Assembly (NCBI GenBank): GCA_023488945.1 | Contig: JAMDBZ010000014.1 | Location: 1 to 10,353 of the forward strand | Source of the DNA: Deltaproteobacteria bacterium | Lineage (GTDB): Bacteria; Desulfobacterota_E; Deferrimicrobia; Deferrimicrobiales; Deferrimicrobiaceae | DNA length: 10,353 bases | Reading direction: 5' to 3' | In this document: positions 249 to 10,109 of the stretch, one piece after another | How positions within the stretch are numbered: the stretch's first letter is position 1 | How the letters are laid out: each line of letters starts with the position of its first letter | Position numbers and translations under genes: made by a program | Notes under the pieces: generated by a model | Seen by the model: the letters and a program-made list of their open reading frames with translations, nothing else | Told to the model about the DNA's origin: nothing | Database searches by the model: none

Positions 249-1181
249 GTGACCCGCTGGAAATCGTTCACGGTGGAGACGCGCCGCGAGGCGGTGGACG
301 CCGTCTCGCACTTCTTCACCGGCCACGGCTCGCTGGGGCTGGCGTACGACGAGCGCCTGTTCGGCCCCAAGGGGGACCCCGCGGAGCCGCTTCCGGCGCC
401 CGACGAGATCACCCGGCTCACGGCCTACTTCCCGTGGGAGACCGACCTCCACTCGCTCAAGAAGGAATTCCTCGACTTCCTCCCCGTGCTCGCTGAATCG
501 TTCGGAACCGGGACCGGCTCGTTCGTCTCGGCGGCGGAGATCACCGACTTCGGCTGGGCGGAGAAGTGGAAGGAACATTTCACGGCGCGCAAGGTCGGCG
601 AGCGGCTCGTCGTCAAGCCGTCGTGGGAACCGTATGACGCGGCATCCGGCGAGGTCGTCCTGACGATCGACCCCGGCCAGGCGTTCGGAACCGGGACCCA
701 CGAGACGACGCGGATGTGCCTGCGGCTCACCGAGGCGCTCTTCGCGGATCACCCCGCCCCGCGCAGGGTCCTCGACATCGGGACCGGCACCGGCATCCTG
801 GGGATCGCGGCCGCGAAGCTCGGCGCCGAATGCGTTTTGGGGACCGACGCCGACCCGAAGGCGGTCGAAGTGGCTGCGGAGAACGCGCGGATCAACGGGA
901 TCGCGGACCGGTTCCACGCGACGGATGCGCCGCTGTCGCAGATCGAGGGGGTGTTCGACCTCGTCCAGGCCAACCTCATCGCGGAGATCCTGGTCGACCT
1001 GAAGAAGGAGCTCGTCGGGCGGACCCGGTCCGGGGGGGCGATGATCCTGTCGGGGATCCTGGCCGAGAAGGCCGGGTGGGTCGAGGAGGAGTTCGCGGCG
1101 GAAGGGGTCCGCGTCGCGGAGCGGCGGGAGGACGGACAGTGGGCCGCCCTGTTCCTGCTCCGGGAGCCATCCGCGCCCTAA
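249..1181 (+). CDS. prmA: Ribosomal protein L11 methyltransferase (PrmA)
   Basis: SAM-dependent methyltransferase that methylates amino groups of ribosomal protein L11 in the cytosol. The 310-aa length fits the family (about 290-310). The N-terminal substrate-recognition domain covers roughly residues 1-120. The family signature DPGQAFGTGTHETT is at 141-154, the SAM-binding glycine motif VLDIGTGTGILGI at 174-186, the acidic ribose-binding position near D200, and the active-site segment QANLIAEIL at 240-248. The GTG start at 249 is chosen because GGAGG (239-243) lies five bases upstream and the N terminus WKSFTVET matches the family start. It is first in a likely operon, ending 10 bases before rsmE, and prmA-rsmE adjacency is common in bacteria. 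Nothing looks damaged. Confidence 0.95.
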   Translation: MTRWKSFTVETRREAVDAVSHFFTGHGSLGLAYDERLFGPKGDPAEPLPAPDEITRLTAYFPWETDLHSLKKEFLDFLPVLAESFGTGTGSFVSAAEITDFGWAEKWKEHFTARKVGERLVVKPSWEPYDAASGEVVLTIDPGQAFGTGTHETTRMCLRLTEALFADHPAPRRVLDIGTGTGILGIAAAKLGAECVLGTDADPKAVEVAAENARINGIADRFHATDAPLSQIEGVFDLVQANLIAEILVDLKKELVGRTRSGGAMILSGILAEKAGWVEEEFAAEGVRVAERREDGQWAALFLLREPSAP

Positions 1182-1191
1182 GACCCGCGGG

Positions 1192-1929
1192 ATGCCGACC
1201 TTCCTCGTCAACCGGCGCGCCATTTCCGGCGACACGGCGGTCCTCTCCGGCACCGAGGCCGCGCACATGCTCCGGTCGCTGCGGCTTTCAACCGGCGACT
1301 CGTTCTTCGCCTTCGACGAGGACGGGACGCGCTACCGGATGCGGATCCTCGAAGCCACCTCGCGCTCCATGAGGGCCGAGGTCCTCGAGACGTACCCGCC
1401 GCCCCCCCTGCCCTCCGTTCCGGTCACGCTCCTCGTCGGGCTCCCCAAGGCCGACAAGATGGACTTCATCATCGAGAAGGCGACCGAGCTCGGCTGCTCG
1501 CGCATCGTCCCGTTCCGGTCGTCCCGGACGATCCCCCGGCTCGACGGCGCCGAAGCGCAGAAGCGGCTGTTGCGCTGGGAGCGGGTCGCCGTGGCGGCGG
1601 CCAAGCAGTGCGGCTCGGGCCGCGTGCCGGAGATCTCCGGGCTCCTCTCCTACGCGGATGCGTTGCGCGCCGCCTCCTCCTGCGACGGCCGGATCGTCTT
1701 CTACGAAGGCGAGGAACAGTTCGGGCTGAAGAGAACGCTCGACGGGATGCGCGGCATCCGCGGCGCGGCGCTGCTCGTCGGCCCCGAGGGCGGCTTCTCG
1801 GAGGACGAGGTCCGGGATGCGGAGAGTCTCGGGTTCGTCCGGGCGGGCCTGGGACCCCGGATCCTGCGGGTGGAGACGGCGGCGCTCGCCGTCCTGGCGA
1901 TGGTGATGTATCATTTCGGGAACGATTGA
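1192..1929 (+). CDS. rsmE: 16S rRNA (uracil1498-N3)-methyltransferase (RsmE)
   Basis: SPOUT-class methyltransferase that makes m3U1498 in 16S rRNA of the assembled small subunit. The 245-aa length is normal. An N-terminal PUA-like RNA-binding domain covers about residues 1-70. The knotted SPOUT domain follows, with KADKMDFIIEKATELG (86-101), the SAM-binding loop GPEGGF (197-202) and the knot motif LGPRILRVETAALAVL (220-235). The ATG at 1192 has only a weak GCGGG upstream and starts 10 bases after the prmA stop, consistent with translational coupling. The pairing of two ribosome-modifying methyltransferases supports a shared transcript. Intact by sequence. Confidence 0.95.
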   Translation: MPTFLVNRRAISGDTAVLSGTEAAHMLRSLRLSTGDSFFAFDEDGTRYRMRILEATSRSMRAEVLETYPPPPLPSVPVTLLVGLPKADKMDFIIEKATELGCSRIVPFRSSRTIPRLDGAEAQKRLLRWERVAVAAAKQCGSGRVPEISGLLSYADALRAASSCDGRIVFYEGEEQFGLKRTLDGMRGIRGAALLVGPEGGFSEDEVRDAESLGFVRAGLGPRILRVETAALAVLAMVMYHFGND

Positions 1930-1962
1930 GAAACCCCTGTCCCAGAGGACGACCGACCGCCG

Positions 1963-2724
1963 ATGACCGCCCCCACGAACGACCGCCGGTCCCTCTATGC
2001 CGGGTTCTGGACCCGCGCCGCCGCGCGGATCATCGACATCCTCATCATCCTGATCGTCTACAACCTCTTCTACCTCGTGGACCGTCTCGGCGCCGACGCG
2101 GGGCTGTGGAGCGCCACCGGGCTCGGCGAGGGGGAGGCGGGGAACGCCTTCTCCGTGGAGAACTTCCTGCGCGGCGTCTTCTTCCTCGGCTTCCCGATCT
2201 TCTACTACGTGTTTCTGCACGGCACCTACGGCCAGACCTTCGGCAAGATGGCGATGAAAATCAAGCTCCTGAACGAGGATGGCTCGCCGATCGGTTACCA
2301 GAAATCGATCAGGCGATGGCTGGTCGAATTCACGTTCAACGCGGTATTCCCCTTTTTCCTGTTATTTCTTTTGGTTCTCATAACATCCTCCGTGGAATTT
2401 CTGCTCAACAAAATGTCTTCCGTGTTCTCGGTGATGGAATATCTGCAATCGGCATTCAGCTGGGTGGCGGGAATTGCCGTCATGGTCATTATCATGGCTC
2501 CCACGGGAATCATGTTCTTATGGGCCGCCTTCGACCGCCGCAAACAAGGGTTGCACGACAAGATTTGCAGGACGCTCGTGGTCAAGGTCAACGGGCCCGC
2601 GGTCCCGGGTGCGTCTCCCTCCGGCCCCGTGACTGGCGGGGTGACGACGGAGCCGCCGTCACCCGCGCCGCCCGCCCCGATCGGCCCGGACTCTCCCGCT
2701 CCATCACACCCGCCTGCGAACTGA
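1963..2724 (+). CDS. RDD family integral membrane protein
   Basis: RDD proteins are small polytopic membrane proteins of mostly unknown role, some linked to ion transport. The family marks are present: YAGFWTRAAARIID (12-25, with the R and D residues), GTYGQTFGKMAMKIKLLNEDG split around 87-107, and RRKQGLHDKICRTLVV (192-207). Hydrophobic segments lie near 22-39, 70-86, 124-142 and 165-189. After residue 210 comes a Pro/Ser/Thr-rich tail of about 43 residues with no fold expected, beyond the usual family end. AGAGGA (1944-1949) lies 13 bases before the ATG, a rather long spacing. It follows rsmE by 33 bases and probably belongs to the same operon. The section around 2330-2560 is visibly more AT-rich than its surroundings. 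Confidence 0.85.
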   Translation: MTAPTNDRRSLYAGFWTRAAARIIDILIILIVYNLFYLVDRLGADAGLWSATGLGEGEAGNAFSVENFLRGVFFLGFPIFYYVFLHGTYGQTFGKMAMKIKLLNEDGSPIGYQKSIRRWLVEFTFNAVFPFFLLFLLVLITSSVEFLLNKMSSVFSVMEYLQSAFSWVAGIAVMVIIMAPTGIMFLWAAFDRRKQGLHDKICRTLVVKVNGPAVPGASPSGPVTGGVTTEPPSPAPPAPIGPDSPAPSHPPAN

Positions 2725-2991: not shown

Positions 2992-3067
<76 letters not shown>

Positions 3068-3077
3068 TGAAAATCAG

Positions 3078-3107
3078 GGGGTTAGCCCGCAACGGCTAGC
3101 CCCTTTT
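3078..3107 (+). terminator. Rho-independent terminator after tRNA-Phe
   Basis: GGGGTTAGCC (3078-3087) pairs with GGCTAGCCCC (3094-3103) as a 10-bp stem with one G-T pair and a 6-base loop, followed by TTTT (3104-3107). On the other strand four T's appear four bases past the stem, so it may also weakly stop transcription coming from the integrase remnant, whose TAA stop lies inside the stem. Confidence 0.85.
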
Positions 3108-3633
3108 CAGTCTCGACTGTCAAGTGATTGTCAAGTTGGCCGCCGGTAAGGGCCGCGTCGAGGATGGAGAGCGCGTTCCTTGTGTGGGATGGGGCGAGGT
3201 GGGAATAGCGCAGGGTCATGGTAAGTGTCTTGTGGCCCAGGAGCGCCTTGACCGTGGTGATATCCACGCCAGCCATGACAAGTTGAGAAGCGAAGGTATG
3301 CCGGAGGTCATGGAACCGAAAATCTTTGATCCCTGCCCGCCTACAGGCCGCGTGGAAGCCCTTCTTTACGTCCCCGTATCGTTTCCCCTCTTCGTTGACG
3401 AAAACGTGGGGGCAATCCACGCGCCGCACGATCTGCTGTAGGGCTTCGCGGAGAGTGGCGTTGATCGGGATCTCCCGCCGCTCCCCGTTCTTCGTCCGGT
3501 CCAGGAGAATGAAGCCGTGTCGGAGGTCGATATGCTTTTCCCACTCAAGGGAAAGGATCTCCTCTATCTCTTCGCCGCGCAAAGTCGGCGGCGGCATGAA
3601 AGTGGAGATTGGATTCGTTATGGCGAGACGCAA
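3082..3633 (-). pseudogene. Tyrosine recombinase/integrase, N-terminally truncated
   Basis: The catalytic domain of a phage-type tyrosine integrase (site-specific DNA strand exchange) is preserved: K48 in RTKNG, H108-x-x-R111 in FHDLRH, H134 in LGHK, and nucleophile Y143 in RYSH. A possible first arginine is R19 in TLRGEE, but the segment GEEIEEIL carries an apparent 9-base duplication (EEI twice), shifting the usual R-to-LxW spacing by three residues. The whole core-binding and arm-binding N-terminal part (about 150-200 residues) is missing. An in-frame TGA lies three codons before the TTG at 3633, and no ribosome-binding site precedes that TTG. Its 5' end overlaps the neighbouring gene by 89 bases in another frame, suggesting a deletion junction. 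It ends beside tRNA-Phe. Probably inactive. Confidence 0.8.
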
Positions 3634-4000
3634 CGTCTTTCAGAATCACGGGGATCTCCTGGACAAGCCCTTCGGCTTTATCCCTTAGCGCCCGAACCTT
3701 CTTCGCGTCCGCAAGGGGCGGAGGAACCTTTGGTCGATTCGGATTGCACAGAAGCCCGAGGTATAGAGCATAGGCGAAGACAGGGATCACGTCCTGCCCA
3801 TCCTTCGCCGCCTTGCACATGGAGTGGTAAGCCTCCTCCATCCGGCGGTCCATCAGGAACCCATCCGCGTGTTTCCTGTATTCGGGAGGGATAACGTATA
3901 CCGCGACGCCGTCCACCTTGGCGTCGATTATTCGAAGAACCTCCGCGGAAATCTGTCGCCAGTTTTCCTTGATCGCTTCCGAACGGTGAGGTTCCGACAT
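3545..4000 (-). CDS. Hypothetical protein, 151 aa, mobile-region
   Basis: I do not recognise this protein. The ATG at 4000 is preceded by GGGGGGAGG with a 7-base spacer, a good ribosome-binding site, and no alternative in-frame start lies upstream before the toxin stop. The product is soluble and rich in charged residues, with helical stretches (about 8-28, 45-67, 97-125), no signal peptide, no membrane segment and no cysteine-based metal site. The last 30 residues or so (arginine-rich, DFARRRDRGDPFP) are read out of frame across the integrase 5' end. The true C terminus may therefore have been replaced at a deletion junction. It lies between the toxin-antitoxin pair and the integrase, all on the same strand. 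Codon use looks ordinary for the window. Confidence 0.6.
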   Translation of the reverse strand: MSEPHRSEAIKENWRQISAEVLRIIDAKVDGVAVYVIPPEYRKHADGFLMDRRMEEAYHSMCKAAKDGQDVIPVFAYALYLGLLCNPNRPKVPPPLADAKKVRALRDKAEGLVQEIPVILKDVASRHNESNLHFHAAADFARRRDRGDPFP

Positions 4001-4035
4001 TTCGCCGCCTCCCCCCGCGGTCCGGCCCTCAAAAG

Positions 4036-4052
4036 TGATCCCGGGGAAGGCG
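4036..4052. repeat. 17-bp dispersed repeat, copy 1
   Basis: TGATCCCGGGGAAGGCG is repeated exactly at 4765-4781, and similarity continues loosely for about 20 more bases (AGGAT, GCC, GCC). The two copies lie outside either end of the toxin-antitoxin pair. On the - strand this copy reads in an open frame as FAFPGITFEG, between the toxin stop and the start of the 151-aa gene, without its own start codon. Confidence 0.65.
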
Positions 4053-4117
4053 AATGAGGATTGCCCGCCGTCTCCGTCCCCGCCCGCGAAGCGAGGACGT
4101 ATCCCCGAGAAGTCGTG

Positions 4118-4390
4118 TCAGGTCCGCCGGTAAACTTCCCGACGATGCCCGACGTTCATCACCATCACAATCAATGCGCGGTCGTGCACCTCGTACACGA
4201 TCCGGTAATCCCCGACGCGGACGCGGTACGCGGTTTCCTCCCCTTCGATCTTCCGTGCCCCGTGGGGACGCGGATTCTCCGCGAGCGCGTCAATCTTCGG
4301 TTCGATCCTCCGCCGCACGTCCTCCGGGAGCGTGCGATACGCCTTCGCCGCCCGGTGAGCGAATTCGATCCGATAACGGGACGCCGCCAT
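4118..4390 (-). CDS. RelE/ParE-superfamily toxin
   Basis: The 90-aa basic protein has the RelE fold signature: an N-terminal YRIEFAHRAAKAYRTLP, a helical pair to about residue 40, then YRVRVGDYRIVYEV (55-68) and a last strand with VGHRREVYR (80-88). RelE toxins cleave mRNA in the ribosomal A site, while ParE members poison gyrase. The basic and tyrosine positions of RelE-type nucleases have counterparts here (R56, R58, R63, R83, Y87), which favours the mRNA-cleaving type, though this is inference. The ATG at 4390 directly abuts the antitoxin TAG, with no bases between, so translation is probably coupled. It looks intact, with family-typical length. In a decaying island such a pair may persist through addiction. 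Confidence 0.88.
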   Translation of the reverse strand: MAASRYRIEFAHRAAKAYRTLPEDVRRRIEPKIDALAENPRPHGARKIEGEETAYRVRVGDYRIVYEVHDRALIVMVMNVGHRREVYRRT

Positions 4391-4645
4391 CTACCGGCCC
4401 GTGTCCGCCTTCACCTTCTCCCACGGGATCGTCCCCTTCTTCCGAACCTCCGCCCGCGCCTTCTTCAACAGGTCGCGGTCTATAAGGTCCTCCACTTTCT
4501 CCAAGAGGTCGAAGTCCTCCATTGGAACGATTGCCGCCATCCCCTTTCCCCGCCGACGAATGACGGTCCTTTCGCCCTTGTACGCGGCCCGGTTGATGAG
4601 TTCCGTGAAGTTGTCCCGCGCTTCGCTTGTCGCCACCTTCGGCAT
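4391..4645 (-). CDS. Phd/YefM-type antitoxin
   Basis: The 84-aa protein begins MPKVATSEARDNFTELINRA, typical of Phd/YefM antitoxins, whose N-terminal half binds DNA and whose C-terminal tail wraps the toxin. VIRRRGKGMAAIVPMEDFDLLE (48-63 region edge) is the conserved strand and helix of the Phd fold. The charged tail after about residue 55 is the expected toxin-neutralising part. Start at 4645: GGAGG lies five bases upstream. It is the first gene of the pair and is immediately followed by the toxin, giving antitoxin-first order. A palindrome covering its -10 box suggests autoregulation. Confidence 0.88.
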   Translation of the reverse strand: MPKVATSEARDNFTELINRAAYKGERTVIRRRGKGMAAIVPMEDFDLLEKVEDLIDRDLLKKARAEVRKKGTIPWEKVKADTGR

Positions 4646-4666
4646 ATCGGCCTCCGTTCGCCTTAA

Positions 4667-4690
4667 TGTCCGAATTGTACCATTCGGTCA
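4667..4690 (-). promoter_or_regulatory. Promoter -10 and palindromic operator of the TA operon
   Basis: CCGAAT (4670-4675) and ATTCGG (4682-4687) form a perfect inverted repeat around TGTACC, with two further matched bases outside after one mismatch on each side (TG at 4667-4668, CA at 4689-4690). On the - strand the centre holds TACAAT (4679-4674), a five-of-six -10 box, about 29 bases before the antitoxin ATG. The expected -35 position is poor (TTCCCT). Antitoxin dimers of this family bind such palindromes to repress their own operon. Confidence 0.6.
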
Positions 4691-4764
4691 AGGGGAAGGG
4701 AAGGGGTCGGAGATACCCTCCGGGGGACGGTCATCGGCCTTCCCATCCGACGGCTCCCCAAAGA

Positions 4765-4815
4765 TGATCCCGGGGAAGGCGGCGCAGGATGCCGCCTTGT
4801 CGGTCGCCGGGATCA
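4765..4815. repeat. Repeat copy 2 within a 51-bp nested hairpin
   Basis: The 17-mer TGATCCCGGGGAAGGCG (4765-4781) is copy 2 of the dispersed repeat. TGATCCCGG (4765-4773) is inverted as CCGGGATCA (4807-4815). Inside, GGCGGC (4779-4784) pairs with GCCGCC (4792-4797) around a 7-base loop. It lies 27 bases past the stop of the secreted-protein gene on the - strand and may help end its transcript, but no T-run follows. Confidence 0.6.
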
Positions 4816-4841
4816 GCGGCGACCTATCCCCGGAAGCTACA

Positions 4842-5288: not shown

Positions 5289-5702
5289 CTACGAGAGCGC
5301 GGCCTGCTTCGTGCAGCAGGGACGGGCCGCCTCCAACCCCGCCGCGATAACTTCGAGGTCCCGCCGTTTCCAGACGTGCTTTCCGTTCCCGCGGCTTCTC
5401 ATCACCTCCCGGGCAAGATCGAAAAAATCCTGACCGAGGGAATCCATCGCCACTACCACCACGGGTGCCGCGTCCCATTTCTCCCGGCGGTGATCCCGTT
5501 TGCAGAGGGGAAGCCCGTTCCGCAAGTCGTAGCGGAACCGGCCATGCTGTTCCTTCCGGAAAACGTGATGGGCTTGGGTCGCCGTGCCTCGACAGACGGC
5601 GCACCTGGGAACGCCGTTGACGTGGGAACGATGCATGACGACATCACGCCATAAATGGTCAAGCTGCCGCCGAAGGCGGGTAAGGGGAATCTTTCGGCTC
5701 AT
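5289..5702 (-). CDS. HNH/NinG-like phage nuclease-fold protein
   Basis: The 137-aa basic protein resembles phage HNH proteins of the NinG/Rap kind, which act on branched DNA or as DNA-packaging-associated nucleases. Residues 8-33 (LRRQLDHLWRDVVMHR) form the N-terminal helix typical of the group. The zinc/active-site region follows: C34-x-x-C37, H45-H46, RYDLRNG with N62, then LCKRDHRREK (66-75) with C67 and H71. The second zinc knuckle should read CxxC, but here is CxxD (C67, D70), so one ligand is unusual. The ATG at 5702 has only AGGGA nearby, and the stronger GGAGGAGG is about 17 bases upstream with no better start codon in frame. It is flanked by phage-like remnants on the same strand. 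Confidence 0.7.
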   Translation of the reverse strand: MSRKIPLTRLRRQLDHLWRDVVMHRSHVNGVPRCAVCRGTATQAHHVFRKEQHGRFRYDLRNGLPLCKRDHRREKWDAAPVVVVAMDSLGQDFFDLAREVMRSRGNGKHVWKRRDLEVIAAGLEAARPCCTKQAALS

Positions 5703-5877: not shown

Positions 5878-6336
5878 CTACCGTTTCAGCGTGAAGCCCA
5901 CGGCATAGTAATCGCACCCGGGAGATCCGTTGGCTTGAACATATACCGTCTGGGACGTAGGTAGAGAAACGTCTCCTCCGTAATTAAGACTCCCCGTTGG
6001 ACCGGCAACAAGTTCCGTCAGCGTATTTGGACCTCCTGTTGAATCTGCGAAAGTGGTTCCAGAGAGATGACATATATTCCCTCCGAGCGTGTACATTCTC
6101 GCCTTTATGGACTTGGCGATATTCGGTGGGACGACGGCGTAGACAAGTGCCCCTCCTGCGGCTAGGCTTACCGCTGTCGTTGTGGTGGACGTTACCGTGG
6201 CGAATATCGGCTTCACGCCCCAGGAGTACATGTCATCCAGTTGCGTAAATTCTTTAATCTTGAACGGCGTCCCCGTGTTGTCCGTCGTACACCATGAAAC
6301 GAGGGCCTTGTAGGTGTACCCGGAGGGCGCTCGCAC
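5878..6336 (-). pseudogene. Phage tail-like protein, C-terminal fragment
   Basis: The 152-residue open frame reads like the C-terminal domain of a phage tail or virion-associated protein. It has PSGYTYKALVSWCTTD near the start (compare the 'P-x-GYTY-x-x-x-x-x-x-TD-x-x-G' pattern of such proteins), many Thr/Gly/Ser-rich beta-type stretches (TVTSTTTTAVSLAAGG), and a C-terminal strand CDYYAVGFTLKR. There is no signal peptide or membrane helix. The apparent GTG at 6336 lies in DNA of the adjoining IS3 transposase, so it is not the real start: the gene has lost its N-terminal part. The break is near 6325-6330, where transposase similarity begins on the other strand. The assignment is from pattern memory and moderate. 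Confidence 0.6.
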
Positions 6337-6686
6337 GATACGGGACGCCGGAGATCTTCATCACGGATCAGGGGTGCCAGTTCACCAGCATCGAGTTCAT
6401 CGAGGTCCTCAAGGAGGCCGGTGTCCGGATCTCGATGGACAGCAAGGGGCGGTGGATGGACAACATCATGATCGAGCGGCTGTGGCGGAGCCTGAAGTAC
6501 GAGTGCGTCTATCTGCACGCCTTCGAGACCGGCAGCGAAGCCAAGGCCGGAATCGGGAGATGGGTCAGTTTCTACAACGAGCATCGTCCCCATTCCAGTC
6601 TGGACGACCAGACACCCGACGAGGCATACTCTCGAAACAACGGGACCGGTTCCCCGGTTCCCGTCGACCCGCAGGCAGCGGCGTGA
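6327..6686 (+). pseudogene. IS3-family transposase OrfB, C-terminal fragment
   Basis: The frame encodes the end of an IS3-type DDE integrase-core transposase. ALARYGTPEIF is followed by TDQGCQFTS (the second catalytic Asp, codon at 6366), KGRWMDN, MIERLWRSLKYE (the catalytic Glu of IERLW, codon at 6474), and the family-typical end FYNEHRPHSSLDDQTPDEAY. The first catalytic Asp region and all of OrfA are missing, so it cannot be active. Full OrfB is usually about 280 aa, and about 119 residues remain. The frame is open further left to 6294, but those residues are antisense to the phage-tail remnant and do not look like transposase. TGA stop at 6684-6686. Confidence 0.88.
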
Positions 6687-6910: not shown

Positions 6911-6923
6911 GAGCCACGAAACG

Positions 6924-9900
6924 ATGCCGACGGAATTCCCTGGGCTGACCGACGCGGAAGTGCGGGCGCGCATCGCACGCGGCGATGTCAATCGGGTTGC
7001 GATGCCGACGAGCCGCACGGCTATGGAAATCGTGCGCGCCAACGTCTTGACCCGGTTCAACGCGATCCTGGGAACACTGTTCGTCGTGATTGTGACGACG
7101 GGTCCTTGGCAGGACGCTCTGTTCGGCGGGGTGTTCGTCGTCAACACCCTGATCGGCATCGTCCAGGAGCTCCGGGCAAAATGGATGCTTGACCGCCTCG
7201 CGCTGGTGAGCCAGCCCAAGACCCGCGCGGTTCGCTCCGGACAGATCGCCGACATCCCGGCGGGAGAGATCGTTCTGGACGACATCCTGGAGTTGGCGCC
7301 CGGCGACCAGGTGGTGGTCGACGGCGTCATGCTCGGCGCCTTGGGGCTCGAAGTCGATGAATCCTTTCTGACCGGCGAGTCGGCCGCGGTGCCCAAACGG
7401 CCCGGGGAGGAAGTGCTGTCGGGAAGCTTCGTCGTCGCCGGCACCGGCCGCTGCCGGGTGACCCGGGTCGGAGCCTCCGCCTACGGGCATCGCCTCGCCA
7501 GCGAGGCCAAACGCTTCAGCCTGGCGCATTCCGACCTGAGAGCAGGGATCAACCGGATTCTGCGTTACATCACGTGGGCCATCGTGCCCACCGCCGCGCT
7601 CTTGTTTGCCGGTCAATTCGTCGTCCAGGCACAGGTTGGCGACGCCCTGTTGTTCTCCGCAGCCGGCGTGGTCGCGATGGTGCCGGAGGGACTGGTGTTA
7701 TTGACGAGCCTTGCCCTGGCGGTGGGCGCCGTCAGGCTGGCCCGCCGTCGGACGCTGGTCCAGGACCTCCCCGCGACCGAGACGCTGGCCAGGGTCGACG
7801 TGATCTGCCTCGACAAGACCGGCACGCTGACCGAGCGGGAACCACGGGTCGAGCGCATCGAGCTGCTGGGCGACCATCCCGATGCGATGGACGCGCTGGC
7901 AGCCCTGGCGGTAGCCGAGTCCAGGCCGAATGCCACGCTGCGGGCGATCGGGCGGGCTCACCCCAGGGAACAGGGCCATGCCGCCACCGATTCCGTGCCT
8001 TTCTCGTCGGCGCGCAAATGGAGCGGCGCGACGCTGGATGAACTCGGCACCTGGGTCCTGGGTGCGCCCGAGGTGCTCCTGGCCGAAATCCCCGGCAGCG
8101 ACACCGTACGCCGACGCGCCGAGGAGCATGCCCGGTCGGGGCGGCGCGTGCTTCTTCTTGCCAGGACCGGGGACAGGCTCCTATCCGACCGGCTGCCGGG
8201 CGATCTCGTTCCCGCCGCCCTGGTGCTGCTGACCGAACAGGTTCGCGCCGATGCGGCCGAGATGCTGCGGTACTTCGACACCCAGGGCGTGACGATCAAG
8301 GTCCTCTCGGGAGATCATCCAGCCACCGTCAGCCAGGTGGCGACACAGCTCGGAATCGCACACGGCGGCGATCCGGTCGACGCGCGAGCGCTGCCGCAAG
8401 ACGCGGAAACGCTGGCCGGACTGGTGGAAACGCGCTCGGTCTTCGGCCGGATATCACCCCAGCAGAAGCAGTCGCTCATCGCGTCGCTCCAGGCGAACGG
8501 CCACGTGGTCGCGATGGTGGGCGACGGGGTCAACGACGTCCTGGCGCTGAAGCGCGCCGACATCGGCATCGCGATGGGCGCCGGGGCCGGGGCCGCCCGC
8601 GCCGTCTCCCACCTCGTACTCCTCGACAACCGGTTCGCGAGCCTGCCGTCGGTCATCGCGGAGGGCCGCCGCGTGATCGGCAACGTCGAACGGCTGGCGG
8701 CGCTGTTCCTGACCAAGACGGTCTACGCCATGCTCCTGGCGGTGGCCGTCGGTGTGGCCGACGTCACGTTTCCCTTCCTGCCGCGGCACCTGACCCTGGT
8801 CGGGGCGTTGACGATCGGCATCCCCGCCTTTTTTCTGTCCCTCGAACGGAACGACCAGCGGGCGCGTCCCGGCTTCGTCGGCCGCGTTCTGCGCTTCGCC
8901 GTGCCCAGCGGCTTGTTCGTCGCCGGCGCGACATTTGCCGCCTACGCGCTCATCCACACCTATTCCGGCGGCGACCTGGCGCAAGCCCGTGCCGGCGCGA
9001 CGGTGGCCCTGTTCGCCATGGCGAGCTGGGTTCTCGTCCTGGTGGCGCAACCGCTCACGCCGCGGCGCTGGCTTCTTCTCGGTGGGACGGTGACCGCGTT
9101 CATGACCGTGCTCGGCGTGCCGCCGCTGCGCGCATTCTTTGCCCTGGAACGCTTGCCGCTTGAAGCATGGCTCGCCGTGGCGGCGATCGCCCTCGCGGCG
9201 GCCGGCGTCCTGCATTGGAGCGCGTCGGTCGCCGCCCGCGCCCCCGCGGAGGCGATGAAAACCCGGCCGCTGCGGAGGAAGGAGATTGTGGCGTGGCTCG
9301 TCAGCGCGGACAGCCCAAAATGGTTTCTCATGGCTGCGGCAGTGTTCGTCGTGGGCGGCGCCTGGCTGTTTTTCGGCGTGCTGGAGGATGTGATCAGCCA
9401 CGATCCGCTGGTCGACGTGGATGTCTTCGTGTATCACCTGCTGCAGTCACTTCGCACCCCGGCAATGGACAGGGTGATGATTGCCGCCACGGAGCTGGGT
9501 GATGCGCAAGTTCTGCTGCCGGTGATGCTCGTCGCGCTGGCATGGCTCCTCAGCTACCGGCTCTGGTTGACGGCAGGATATTGGCTCGCAGCCATCGGCG
9601 TCGCCGAGGTGCTGGCAAAGGTATTGAAGCTGGCGCTGCATCGGCCGCGTCCCGCGGCGTTCTATGGCGGGATCGAACAGTTCTCCTTCCCGAGCGGCCA
9701 TGCCACGATGAGCGTGGTGGTCTACGGCTTCCTGGCGTTTCTGCTGTGCCGCAATGCGCGCCCCGGTTTGCGCAAGGTCGTCATCTCCCTGACCGCCACG
9801 CTGATCGGCTTGATCGCGCTGTCCCGGCTCTATCTCGGCGCGCACTGGCTGTCCGACGTGCTGGGCGGAGCGAGCTTTGGCGTAGCCTGGATCGCCGCGT

Positions 9901-10109
9901 TGGCCATCGCCTACGAATATCAGTCCCATGAGCAACTCCGGCCGAAAAATTTTGCAGCTCTCATGCTGGCGACCCTGATCATCGCGGGAGGCGCGCATAT
10001 CGCGTTGAGCCACGATGCCGATCGCTTGCGCTATGCGCCCCTGTCGATCACAGCCTGGATTCCACAGCTTTCCGCACCCGTTCGTGCCACTTGGAAAGCA
10101 CTGAGTTAG
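6924..10109 (+). CDS. CtpE-type P-type cation ATPase fused to a PAP2 phosphatase
   Basis: One uninterrupted 1061-aa frame joins two complete membrane enzymes. Residues 1-765 are a P-type ATPase close in style to actinobacterial CtpE (reported as a calcium pump). The actuator-domain TGES is at 150-153, PEGL in the fourth membrane helix at 254-257, the phosphorylation motif DKTGT at 297-301 (D297), KWSG at 365-368, SGDHPATV at 462-469, and the hinge GDGVNDVLALKRAD from 533. About ten membrane helices fit. Residues 785-1030 are a PAP2 lipid phosphatase with all three motifs: K902...R909-P910, PSGH 923-926, and S967-R968...H974...D978. AGGAG (6909-6913) precedes the ATG by 10 bases. Ion and lipid substrates are unknown. 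PAP2 enzymes often recycle undecaprenyl pyrophosphate or dephosphorylate lipids. The gene stands alone after an IS fragment. Confidence 0.92.
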   Translation: MPTEFPGLTDAEVRARIARGDVNRVAMPTSRTAMEIVRANVLTRFNAILGTLFVVIVTTGPWQDALFGGVFVVNTLIGIVQELRAKWMLDRLALVSQPKTRAVRSGQIADIPAGEIVLDDILELAPGDQVVVDGVMLGALGLEVDESFLTGESAAVPKRPGEEVLSGSFVVAGTGRCRVTRVGASAYGHRLASEAKRFSLAHSDLRAGINRILRYITWAIVPTAALLFAGQFVVQAQVGDALLFSAAGVVAMVPEGLVLLTSLALAVGAVRLARRRTLVQDLPATETLARVDVICLDKTGTLTEREPRVERIELLGDHPDAMDALAALAVAESRPNATLRAIGRAHPREQGHAATDSVPFSSARKWSGATLDELGTWVLGAPEVLLAEIPGSDTVRRRAEEHARSGRRVLLLARTGDRLLSDRLPGDLVPAALVLLTEQVRADAAEMLRYFDTQGVTIKVLSGDHPATVSQVATQLGIAHGGDPVDARALPQDAETLAGLVETRSVFGRISPQQKQSLIASLQANGHVVAMVGDGVNDVLALKRADIGIAMGAGAGAARAVSHLVLLDNRFASLPSVIAEGRRVIGNVERLAALFLTKTVYAMLLAVAVGVADVTFPFLPRHLTLVGALTIGIPAFFLSLERNDQRARPGFVGRVLRFAVPSGLFVAGATFAAYALIHTYSGGDLAQARAGATVALFAMASWVLVLVAQPLTPRRWLLLGGTVTAFMTVLGVPPLRAFFALERLPLEAWLAVAAIALAAAGVLHWSASVAARAPAEAMKTRPLRRKEIVAWLVSADSPKWFLMAAAVFVVGGAWLFFGVLEDVISHDPLVDVDVFVYHLLQSLRTPAMDRVMIAATELGDAQVLLPVMLVALAWLLSYRLWLTAGYWLAAIGVAEVLAKVLKLALHRPRPAAFYGGIEQFSFPSGHATMSVVVYGFLAFLLCRNARPGLRKVVISLTATLIGLIALSRLYLGAHWLSDVLGGASFGVAWIAALAIAYEYQSHEQLRPKNFAALMLATLIIAGGAHIALSHDADRLRYAPLSITAWIPQLSAPVRATWKALS

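What the first reader, a model, noticed from the sequence alone, without database searches (positions are those of the whole stretch)
6924..10109. Single-chain fusion of a CtpE-type P-type ATPase and a PAP2 lipid phosphatase
Seen: one open frame of 1061 codons holds TGES, PEGL, DKTGT, GDGVND and, about 135 residues past the last ATPase helix, all three PAP2 motifs (K902..RP, PSGH, SR..H..D). Known: P-type pumps and PAP2 enzymes are normally separate proteins. Inference: ion transport may be coupled to lipid-phosphate turnover (for example undecaprenyl pyrophosphate recycling controlled by, or feeding on, a divalent cation). Both halves keep every catalytic residue, which argues for selection on both activities.
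Basis: partly seen in the sequence, partly recalled or inferred. Interest (0 to 1): 0.72.

Follow-up and report, generated by a model that had tools for sequence, protein, structure and literature searches.

The report
Ion pump fused to lipid phosphatase
One bacterial protein really does join an ATP-driven membrane pump to an enzyme that strips phosphate from membrane lipids, and family trees suggest that evolution made this joint several separate times, which points to a working link between the two jobs that can now be tested.

Summary
Window 6924-10109 is one open frame of 1061 codons: a CtpE-type (P6) P-type ATPase, a basic linker and a PAP2 lipid phosphatase. It is no artefact: 109 of the 120 listed database hits (the window's own included) are full-length fusions. 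Both halves are under purifying selection (dN/dS 0.16-0.26, five pairs). Machine annotation already names the architecture; five aimed paper searches found no study of it.

New here: (1) the fusion probably arose at least three times: the PAP2 halves of three fused clades do not group together (AU p 0.001 or less), and one fused ATPase clade is rejected (p 0.0008). (2) In 12 of 19 loci the gene directly follows an RND permease; on plasmid pB1701 it sits in a gene row with DedA and C55-PP-phosphatase-like genes. (3) The pump keeps an M5 lysine (210 of 210 rows) and nearly always a carboxylate in M4 or, in one fused subclade, in M6.

Best mechanism: a cation pump with a periplasm-facing, probably C55-PP, phosphatase, carried as mobile cargo. 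Substrates are inferred. Against it: unfused P6 pumps show no PAP2 neighbour, and the fusion is rare. An ATP-driven C55-P flippase is not excluded.

The parts
6924..10109 (+). Complete P6-ATPase/PAP2 fusion gene, 1061 codons plus stop
6924..9239 (+). ATPase half, residues 1-772 (ten membrane helices by my reading of the model)
7371..7382 (+). TGES, A-domain loop (residues 150-153); E152 in 109 of 109 full-length proteins, the window's included
7683..7694 (+). PEGL in M4 (residues 254-257), membrane carboxylate E255; Q in 17 of 109
7812..7826 (+). DKTGT phosphorylation site (D297)
8520..8537 (+). GDGVND hinge (residues 533-538)
8715..8717 (+). K598 in M5, 210 of 210 aligned rows; aligned to a Gly of LMCA1 one residue before the LMCA1 Asn
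8802..8816 (+). M6 residues 627-631: G627 (D in the Q255 subclade) and I631 at the position of the LMCA1 aspartate
9240..9317 (+). Basic linker, residues 773-798, low model confidence; dN/dS 0.28-0.86 (28 codons, 771-798)
9318..10031 (+). PAP2 half, residues 799-1036: PAP2 helices plus one more
9627..9653 (+). PAP2 motif C1 (K902 to P910)
9690..9701 (+). PAP2 motif C2 (PSGH, H926)
9822..9857 (+). PAP2 motif C3 (S967, R968, H974, D978)
6294..6686 (+). IS3-type transposase fragment (rve domains) upstream of the fusion
2992..3067 (+). tRNA-Phe(GAA), probable insertion site of the island that carries the gene (inference)
3082..4000 (-). Tyrosine integrase region beside the tRNA, in two overlapping frames; only the piece at 3082-3633 matches Phage_integrase

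Best explanation
A bifunctional inner-membrane protein. Its N-terminal 770 residues are a P6-family (CtpE-type) P-type ATPase that uses ATP through the phospho-aspartate cycle to move a cation, most likely a divalent one and by family analogy Ca2+ inward. Its C-terminal PAP2 domain faces the periplasm, as judged from helix count and charged loops, and takes the terminal phosphate off an isoprenoid or lipid diphosphate, most likely undecaprenyl pyrophosphate, giving back C55-P. Joining them keeps cation handling and lipid-carrier recycling at the same place and dose under metal or envelope stress; the gene travels as accessory cargo of plasmids and islands. Shown: the architecture, intact motifs, purifying selection on both halves, genomic setting. 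Supported by trees: repeated fusion. Inferred: substrates, membrane side, direction, physical coupling.
For: Single chain with all motifs. In 109 full-length proteins (window included) the nine ATPase positions are intact in 108, the five PAP2 catalytic residues in 103, both in 102. dN/dS of both halves 0.16-0.26 in five pairs, linker looser. Repeated fusion: with nested free PAP2 rows counted in, PAP2 halves of clades I and II as one side p=0.00098, I and III 2e-57, II and III 3e-56, all three 5e-7; fused ATPases as one clade p=0.014 and 0.0008. PAP2 half matches solved B. subtilis PgpB/YodM (1.7e-19) and LpxE (4e-5), and plasmid DedA-PAP2 proteins at up to 50%. Context: an RND permease frame directly upstream (gap 156 bp or less, or overlapping) in 12 of 19 loci; pB1701 row RR-HK-TolC-'metal transporter'-RND-fusion-LssY_C protein with DedA domain-adhesin-MFS-PAP2, with mer and chrA within 14 kb downstream; the last PAP2 scores 185 bits (cut-off 229) with an undecaprenyl-diphosphate phosphatase model. 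The 50 Foldseek hits listed, of 647, are cation pumps. CtpE is reported to take up Ca2+, and P6 pumps to lack the M6 aspartate (PMC5615198, PMC10654040; passages).
Against: No substrate was identified for either half. None of 67 unfused P6 loci held a PAP2 frame by regex, nor did any of 77 unfused loci match the PAP2 half by tblastn. In 112 Actinomycetota genomes with a match, no alignment to fused P0112 reached its PAP2 motifs. Fusions are rare: 6 of 399 genomes of the Trinickia order, centre included, and only the centre of 398 in its phylum. The pump lacks the LMCA1 M6 Asp and has Thr where LMCA1 has its M5 Asn, and 4 of 210 rows have no carboxylate at 255 or 627. The RND permeases are not all of metal type: L011 passes the CusA/CzcA cut-off, L081 falls short of it, L002 and L009 score higher with a multidrug model. 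The absence of RND and PAP2 genes beside unfused pumps is confounded, since those loci are mostly Actinomycetota.
Confidence: 0.42

Rival explanations
1. ATP-driven lipid-carrier recycling machine: PAP2 turns C55-PP into C55-P in the outer leaflet and the P6 pump itself flips C55-P inward, doing with ATP what DedA flippases do with the proton motive force.
For: The same kind of PAP2 module is fused to DedA, a C55-P flippase family (PMC10127716 and PMC12893004, passages). Clade II PAP2 halves nest with DedA-PAP2 and PAP2-LssY proteins. Fusion and DedA-type genes lie side by side in pB1701 and Trinickia, where the neighbour's own PAP2 part has lost all six residues checked. Reported CtpE transport is inward. 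The pump lacks usual M5/M6 Ca2+ ligands but keeps an M5 Lys.
Against: CtpE is reported as a Ca2+ transporter. PEGL in M4 is cation-pump-like. The 50 Foldseek hits listed are cation pumps, no P4 flippase among them. DedA-PAP2 decay also occurs where no fusion gene was seen in the stretch fetched (L105, L085). No lipid groove was tested.
Confidence: 0.17
2. Metal detoxification of the PbrA/PbrB type: the pump exports a toxic divalent metal and PAP2 releases phosphate from C55-PP in the periplasm to precipitate it, here in one chain.
For: PbrA/PbrB is a proposed model in print: Pb2+ exported, Pi made by PbrB, a C55-PP phosphatase, precipitates it (PMC3431237, passages). Setting with RND, mer, chrA, NicO and GDT1 families in L006 and, by eye, a Tn3-like transposase in L001.
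Against: PbrA is a different kind of P-type ATPase (heavy-metal type, recalled); this protein has PEGL in M4 and scores below the heavy-metal cut-offs. The one studied P6 protein cited here imports. Metal genes on plasmids co-travel for many reasons.
Confidence: 0.18
3. Envelope-lipid remodelling: PAP2 acts on phosphatidylglycerophosphate, phosphatidate or lipid A phosphate (PgpB/LpxE-like), lowering the surface's need for divalent cations that the pump handles.
For: The only two solved relatives found are PgpB/YodM and LpxE. A two-component system opens the pB1701 row and has matches in the Trinickia locus.
Against: The pB1701 row already holds a PAP2 resembling an undecaprenyl-diphosphate phosphatase and a DedA-domain protein, which points to C55 lipids.
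Confidence: 0.15
4. Artefact or decayed joint with no linked function.
For: The fusion is rare and the window joins a chromosome unlike the 60 Burkholderiales genomes tested to a gene 90% identical in DNA to a Burkholderiales MAG, so the contig could be chimeric outside the gene.
Against: Unbroken in many contigs and a complete plasmid, under purifying selection in both halves, fused repeatedly.
Confidence: 0.03

Closest known systems
P6 ATPase family (CtpE; proposed in J Biol Chem 2023, PMC10654040)
   Same: P-type ATPase motifs, PEGL in M4, isoleucine at the M6 aspartate position, ten helices, core of about 790 aa
   Different: carries a C-terminal PAP2 phosphatase, in some relatives also LssY_C; one fused subclade has PQGL, nearly always with an M6 aspartate
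Bifunctional DedA/PAP2(-LssY) proteins
   Same: PAP2 half up to about 50% identical, optional LssY_C, neighbouring genes shared in pB1701 and pBCEN1232 (MFS, PAP2, RND, TolC); PMC10127716 suggests the PAP2 part may dephosphorylate UndP-P before flipping (passage)
   Different: the transporter half is a P-type ATPase, not DedA
PbrA + PbrB/C lead resistance (Cupriavidus metallidurans)
   Same: P-type ATPase working with a C55-PP phosphatase; plasmid-borne (PMC3431237, passages)
   Different: another type of P-type ATPase, and pump and phosphatase are separate proteins
B. subtilis PgpB/YodM and bacterial LpxE (PAP2)
   Same: PAP2 sequence match including the motifs
   Different: solved as free-standing enzymes
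P4 lipid flippases
   Same: inward substrate movement and an M5 lysine (both recalled)
   Different: P4 model score far below its cut-off; M4 motif that of cation pumps

Membership tests
P-type ATPase superfamily | DKTGT, TGE and GDGxND motifs with the family domains | tested here: met
   TIGR01494 223 bits against a cut-off of 62
P6 (CtpE) ATPase | PEGL in M4 | tested here: met
   residues 254-257; E in 92 of 109 full-length proteins, Q in 17
P6 (CtpE) ATPase | isoleucine in place of the M6 aspartate | tested here: met
   I631 aligned to the Asp of LMCA1; I in 203, L in 4, V in 3 of 210 rows
P6 (CtpE) ATPase | grouping with CtpE apart from other P-type families | tested here: inconclusive
   groups with unfused actinobacterial-type pumps, one of which a source names 'cation-transporting ATPase E' (P0118), but M. 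tuberculosis or M. smegmatis CtpE and other families were not put in the tree
P6 (CtpE) ATPase | Ca2+ uptake | not testable with these tools
   needs a transport assay
PAP2 phosphatase | motifs C1, C2, C3 with catalytic R, H, R, H, D | tested here: met
PAP2 phosphatase | C55-PP as substrate | not testable with these tools
   NCBIfam C55-PP phosphatase models match below their cut-offs (SepP 42 of 250 bits)
DedA/PAP2 bifunctional protein | DedA (VTT) domain | tested here: not met
   no VTT match at E 0.001 in the window protein
PbrA/PbrB lead resistance | heavy-metal (P1B) ATPase with CPC-type M4 motif (recalled) | tested here: not met
   M4 is PEGL; heavy-metal models score below their cut-offs
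P4 lipid flippase | P4 family score and M4 motif | tested here: not met
   PEGL; TIGR01652 25 bits against a cut-off of 431

The most novel reading that the evidence does not exclude
P6-PAP2 is a one-chain, ATP-powered lipid-carrier recycler: PAP2 makes C55-P from C55-PP in the outer leaflet and the P6 pump drives C55-P back inward, perhaps with a cation as co-substrate. The P6 family at large would then be a bacterial lipid-linked pump family, which would explain its inward direction, its few ion ligands and the envelope phenotypes reported for CtpE. Repeated fusion to PAP2, and the shared PAP2 partner with the DedA flippases, are the clues.
Probability: 0.15. Interest if true: 0.88.

Novelty: new variant of a known kind. 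Interest (0 to 1): 0.58.

Why it matters
P6 ATPases were proposed as a separate family only in 2023, with an open puzzle: why would a pump with Ca-pump features import? Repeated fusion to a lipid phosphatase gives a second, independent handle on what they do. It makes the link between P6 transport, divalent cations and C55-P recycling directly testable with one protein, and it resembles two known partnerships (DedA-PAP2, and PbrA with PbrB) closely enough to decide between them by assay.

Tried and rejected
Assembly or frame artefact: rejected. One ancient fusion with losses: the PAP2 trees speak against it, unless PAP2 was later replaced. My first PAP2 clade tests (p from 1.5e-4 to 3e-88) forced free PAP2 rows that nest inside clades I and III out of the group and so were unfair; one search repeats them with those rows counted in, and these are the figures I use. 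Four fusions (clade III as two): dropped; with nested free rows clade III is one side of a branch (support 92/77), and its ATPases as one clade are not rejected (p=0.49), though in the 210-row tree clade III has support 0.0. Clades I and II as one ATPase clade are also not rejected (p=0.54); their separation rests on the PAP2 halves. Further fusions in Actinomycetota: 25 loci (23 of the 112 matching genomes plus the Sphingomonas centre, one genome twice) lacked the PAP2 regex in the ATPase frame. Second att copy of the tRNA in the window: none found. Metal identity from the RND TM4 motif: not decisive (the first regex matched nothing). Whole genome of the window: not held. DedA-PAP2 decay as division of labour with the fusion: seen in 2 of 2 such loci examined but also in 2 of 5 DedA-PAP2 genes with no fusion gene in the stretch fetched, so not claimed. 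Literature: ten searches of open-licence PMC papers; the five aimed at the joint gave 0, 1, 0, 2 and 0 papers, none about it by title; I did not open those three. The prokaryotic P-type ATPase survey of Chan and co-workers (2010) is not held under the DOI I recalled; I recall that it mentions fusions with catalytic domains, so an earlier passing mention is possible.
Full report
What is there. Window 6924-10109 is one open frame of 1061 codons. Pfam places E1-E2_ATPase, Hydrolase, Cation_ATPase_C and PAP2 along it, all above cut-off. The start is supported by relatives: DNA similarity to L001 begins at 6917, seven bases before the ATG.

Is it real? The protein search scored the 7994 candidates sharing most words and listed the best 120. 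Of these, 109, the window's own included, are at least 990 aa and carry both halves; two of the other 11 are partial and nine are ATPases of 779-800 aa without PAP2. The genome scan kept the best 80 of 586 confirmed places: 12 hold the fusion as one frame (L001-L009, L011-L013), one (L010) is cut by its contig end, and 67 hold only the ATPase. A complete plasmid, pB1701 of Burkholderia contaminans, carries it too. The fusion is therefore not an assembly error. Public sources already give it names such as 'cation-transporting ATPase E/undecaprenyl-diphosphatase'.

Are both halves in use? In the 109 full-length proteins the nine ATPase positions checked are intact in 108, the five PAP2 catalytic residues in 103, and both in 102; the exceptions are listed. 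Against five relatives (L001, L004, L012, L011, L002) dN/dS is 0.16-0.24 for the ATPase, 0.17-0.26 for PAP2 and 0.28-0.86 for the 28-codon linker; dS reaches about 1.1 in the more distant pairs, so those ratios are rough.

The pump. It belongs with the CtpE-like group that a 2023 review proposed as the P6 family (PMC10654040, passages read); CtpE itself was not put in my trees. CtpE of M. smegmatis is reported to take up Ca2+ (PMC5615198, abstract start and passages). In S. pneumoniae ctpE interacts genetically with cozEa, linked there to envelope integrity (PMC11371651, passages). Aligned to Listeria LMCA1, the M6 aspartate is I631, and K598 stands one residue before the LMCA1 M5 Asn. K598 is present in 210 of 210 aligned rows. 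E255 of M4 is present in 188 of 210. Of the 22 rows with Gln there, 18 have Asp at 627 in M6; among the 188 Glu rows only the 10 distant outgroup rows have it. The 18 fused Gln rows form one subclade (support 1.0) and one unfused locus (L054) shows the Gln/Asp pair too, so this is few events; four Gln rows (P0069, L029, L039, L051) have no acid at either place. Other acids in the membrane were not examined. I read this as a membrane carboxylate facing a built-in lysine. The parallel to K791 of the gastric proton pump is recalled, not tested.

The phosphatase. The two solved relatives found are B. subtilis PgpB/YodM and LpxE. The AlphaFold2 model gives, by my reading, ten ATPase helices, a weak linker, the PAP2 helices and one more helix. 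With a cytoplasmic N-terminus, helix counting and the basic loops put the PAP2 motifs, and LssY_C where present, in the periplasm. This is inference from parity, not a measurement. The PAP2 half is up to about 50% identical to PAP2 domains of 'bifunctional DedA family/phosphatase PAP2' proteins on plasmids.

Repeated fusion. On an ATPase tree of 210 rows the 128 fused rows fall in three groups: I (109 rows, with the window, support 0.90), II (6, support 1.0) and III (13, among unfused actinobacterial-type pumps; as a clade support 0.0). The place of II differs between trees: with the actinobacterial-type pumps, with clade I and unfused L039. Holding all fused ATPases together is rejected (p=0.014; p=0.0008 with a mixture model; 61 of the 210 rows used). 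On a PAP2 tree of 56 rows chosen from 291, clade II sits with DedA-PAP2 and PAP2-LssY proteins and clade III with free-standing PAP2 of another lineage. With free PAP2 rows that nest inside I and III counted in, I with II as one side is rejected at p=0.001, I with III at 2e-57, II with III at 3e-56 and all three at 5e-7; such tiny values are extrapolations. Caveats: some free rows come from metagenome contigs and could be pieces, though several lie on long contigs (P0208, P0226, P0180) and L082 and L084 are annotated plasmid genes; PAP2 rows were gathered with queries from I and III; the ATPase trees alone do not separate I from II (p=0.54); replacement of PAP2 after one old fusion would give the same PAP2 tree. 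So: two fusions firmly, three probably.

Setting. I compared 19 clade I loci, leaving out L010 (cut) and L086 and L087 (second copies of L005 and L013). In 12 of 19 an RND permease frame on the same strand ends at most 156 bp upstream of the fused open frame or overlaps it; six of these loci were held with only about 1.5 kb of flank and several are near copies, so independent cases are fewer. The seven without it include L001 (MFS upstream; a frame downstream that I read as a Tn3 transposase), L004 (RND 4.9 kb away on the other strand) and L006 (NicO and GDT1 transporters nearby). On pB1701 the order is response regulator, sensor kinase, TolC, 'metal transporter', RND, fusion with LssY_C, a DedA-domain LssY_C protein, adhesin, MFS, PAP2, with mer and chrA within 14 kb downstream. 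Plasmid pBCEN1232 has the same row without the fusion: RND 86%, MFS 79%, TolC 71%, PAP2 61%, DedA protein 54% identical. So the fusion gene looks like a module set into a row that can exist without it. DedA-PAP2 genes also sit near dmeF with a metal-sensing repressor, near chrB, and beside a heavy-metal two-component system (where the PAP2 part is decayed). No RND, DedA or PAP2 probe hit any of 77 unfused loci, but those are mostly Actinomycetota, so phylum explains part of this.

Distribution. Fusions were found in 6 of 399 genomes of the order of Trinickia, centre included (10 others have only a distant unfused P6), in 1 of 398 of its phylum, the centre itself, in none of 112 matching genomes among 396 Actinomycetota as far as the alignments reach (23 of the 112 looked at for the motif), and in 0 of 289 of the class of Sphingomonas (one unfused hit, the centre). 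It is rare and patchy.

The window. A tRNA-Phe gene (2992-3067) is followed by an integrase region on the other strand in two frames, an int-alpA RNA (4756-4834, minus), a ParE/Phd pair and an IS3 fragment (6294-6686). Left of the tRNA are prmA, rsmE and an RDD gene. Of 60 Burkholderiales genomes, 56 have a match to the rsmE product, at 40% identity at most, while the fusion is 90% identical in DNA to a Burkholderiales MAG. I read this as an island at tRNA-Phe carrying a recently moved gene; a chimeric contig is not excluded.

How it most likely works. Two known partnerships frame the choice. DedA-PAP2 fusions are suggested to make C55-P and flip it (PMC10127716; PMC12893004 on a DedA flippase; passages). 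PbrA with PbrB is proposed to export lead and precipitate it with phosphate from C55-PP (PMC3431237, passages). The fusion shares its kind of PAP2 and its neighbours with the first and its setting with the second, while its pump is neither DedA nor a heavy-metal ATPase. I commit to a cation pump with a periplasmic, probably C55-PP, phosphatase acting together under metal or envelope stress (0.42), ahead of the Pbr-like (0.18), flippase (0.17) and lipid-remodelling (0.15) readings. Shown: architecture, selection, setting. Supported by trees: repeated fusion. Inferred: substrates, side, direction, coupling.

Verdict. Real, uncharacterised in the papers I could search, already named by machine annotation; a new variant of known kinds, made interesting by repeated fusion and by the open question of what P6 pumps do.

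Noticed in passing
window 2992-4834: tRNA-Phe with an adjacent integrase region in two frames and an int-alpA RNA: signs of an integrated island; no second att copy within the window.
   Followed up: partly
window 4118-4645 (-): ParE-like toxin and Phd/YefM antitoxin pair.
   Followed up: no
window 249-2724 against 6924-10109: The rsmE product on the chromosomal side is at most 40% identical to those of the Burkholderiales genomes tested, while the fusion gene is 90% identical in DNA to a Burkholderiales MAG: horizontal transfer or a chimeric contig.
   Followed up: partly
window 5289-5702 (-): Small frame with a weak HNH match, below Pfam's cut-off.
   Followed up: no
L081 18751-20787, L013 11756-13813, L105 7284-9329, L085 5290-7329: DedA-PAP2-LssY proteins whose PAP2 part has lost catalytic residues, in contrast to intact ones in L082, L104 and L106.
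   Followed up: partly
L001, L081, L082, L104, L105, L106: One MFS family (55-79% identical in the pairs listed) recurs beside fusion or DedA-PAP2 genes, several in metal-linked settings; function unknown.
   Followed up: no
L084 7959-8720 and P0316, P0338, P0355: 253-aa free PAP2 proteins nest inside fused clade I, as if released from a fusion.
   Followed up: no
L087 and L103: The Trinickia genome holds two fusion copies, 55-56% identical to the window protein.
   Followed up: no
L093-L102: Distant unfused P6-like pumps (35-38%) in ten genomes of the order of Trinickia have both the M4 Glu and an Asp at the M6 position, perhaps the older site.
   Followed up: partly
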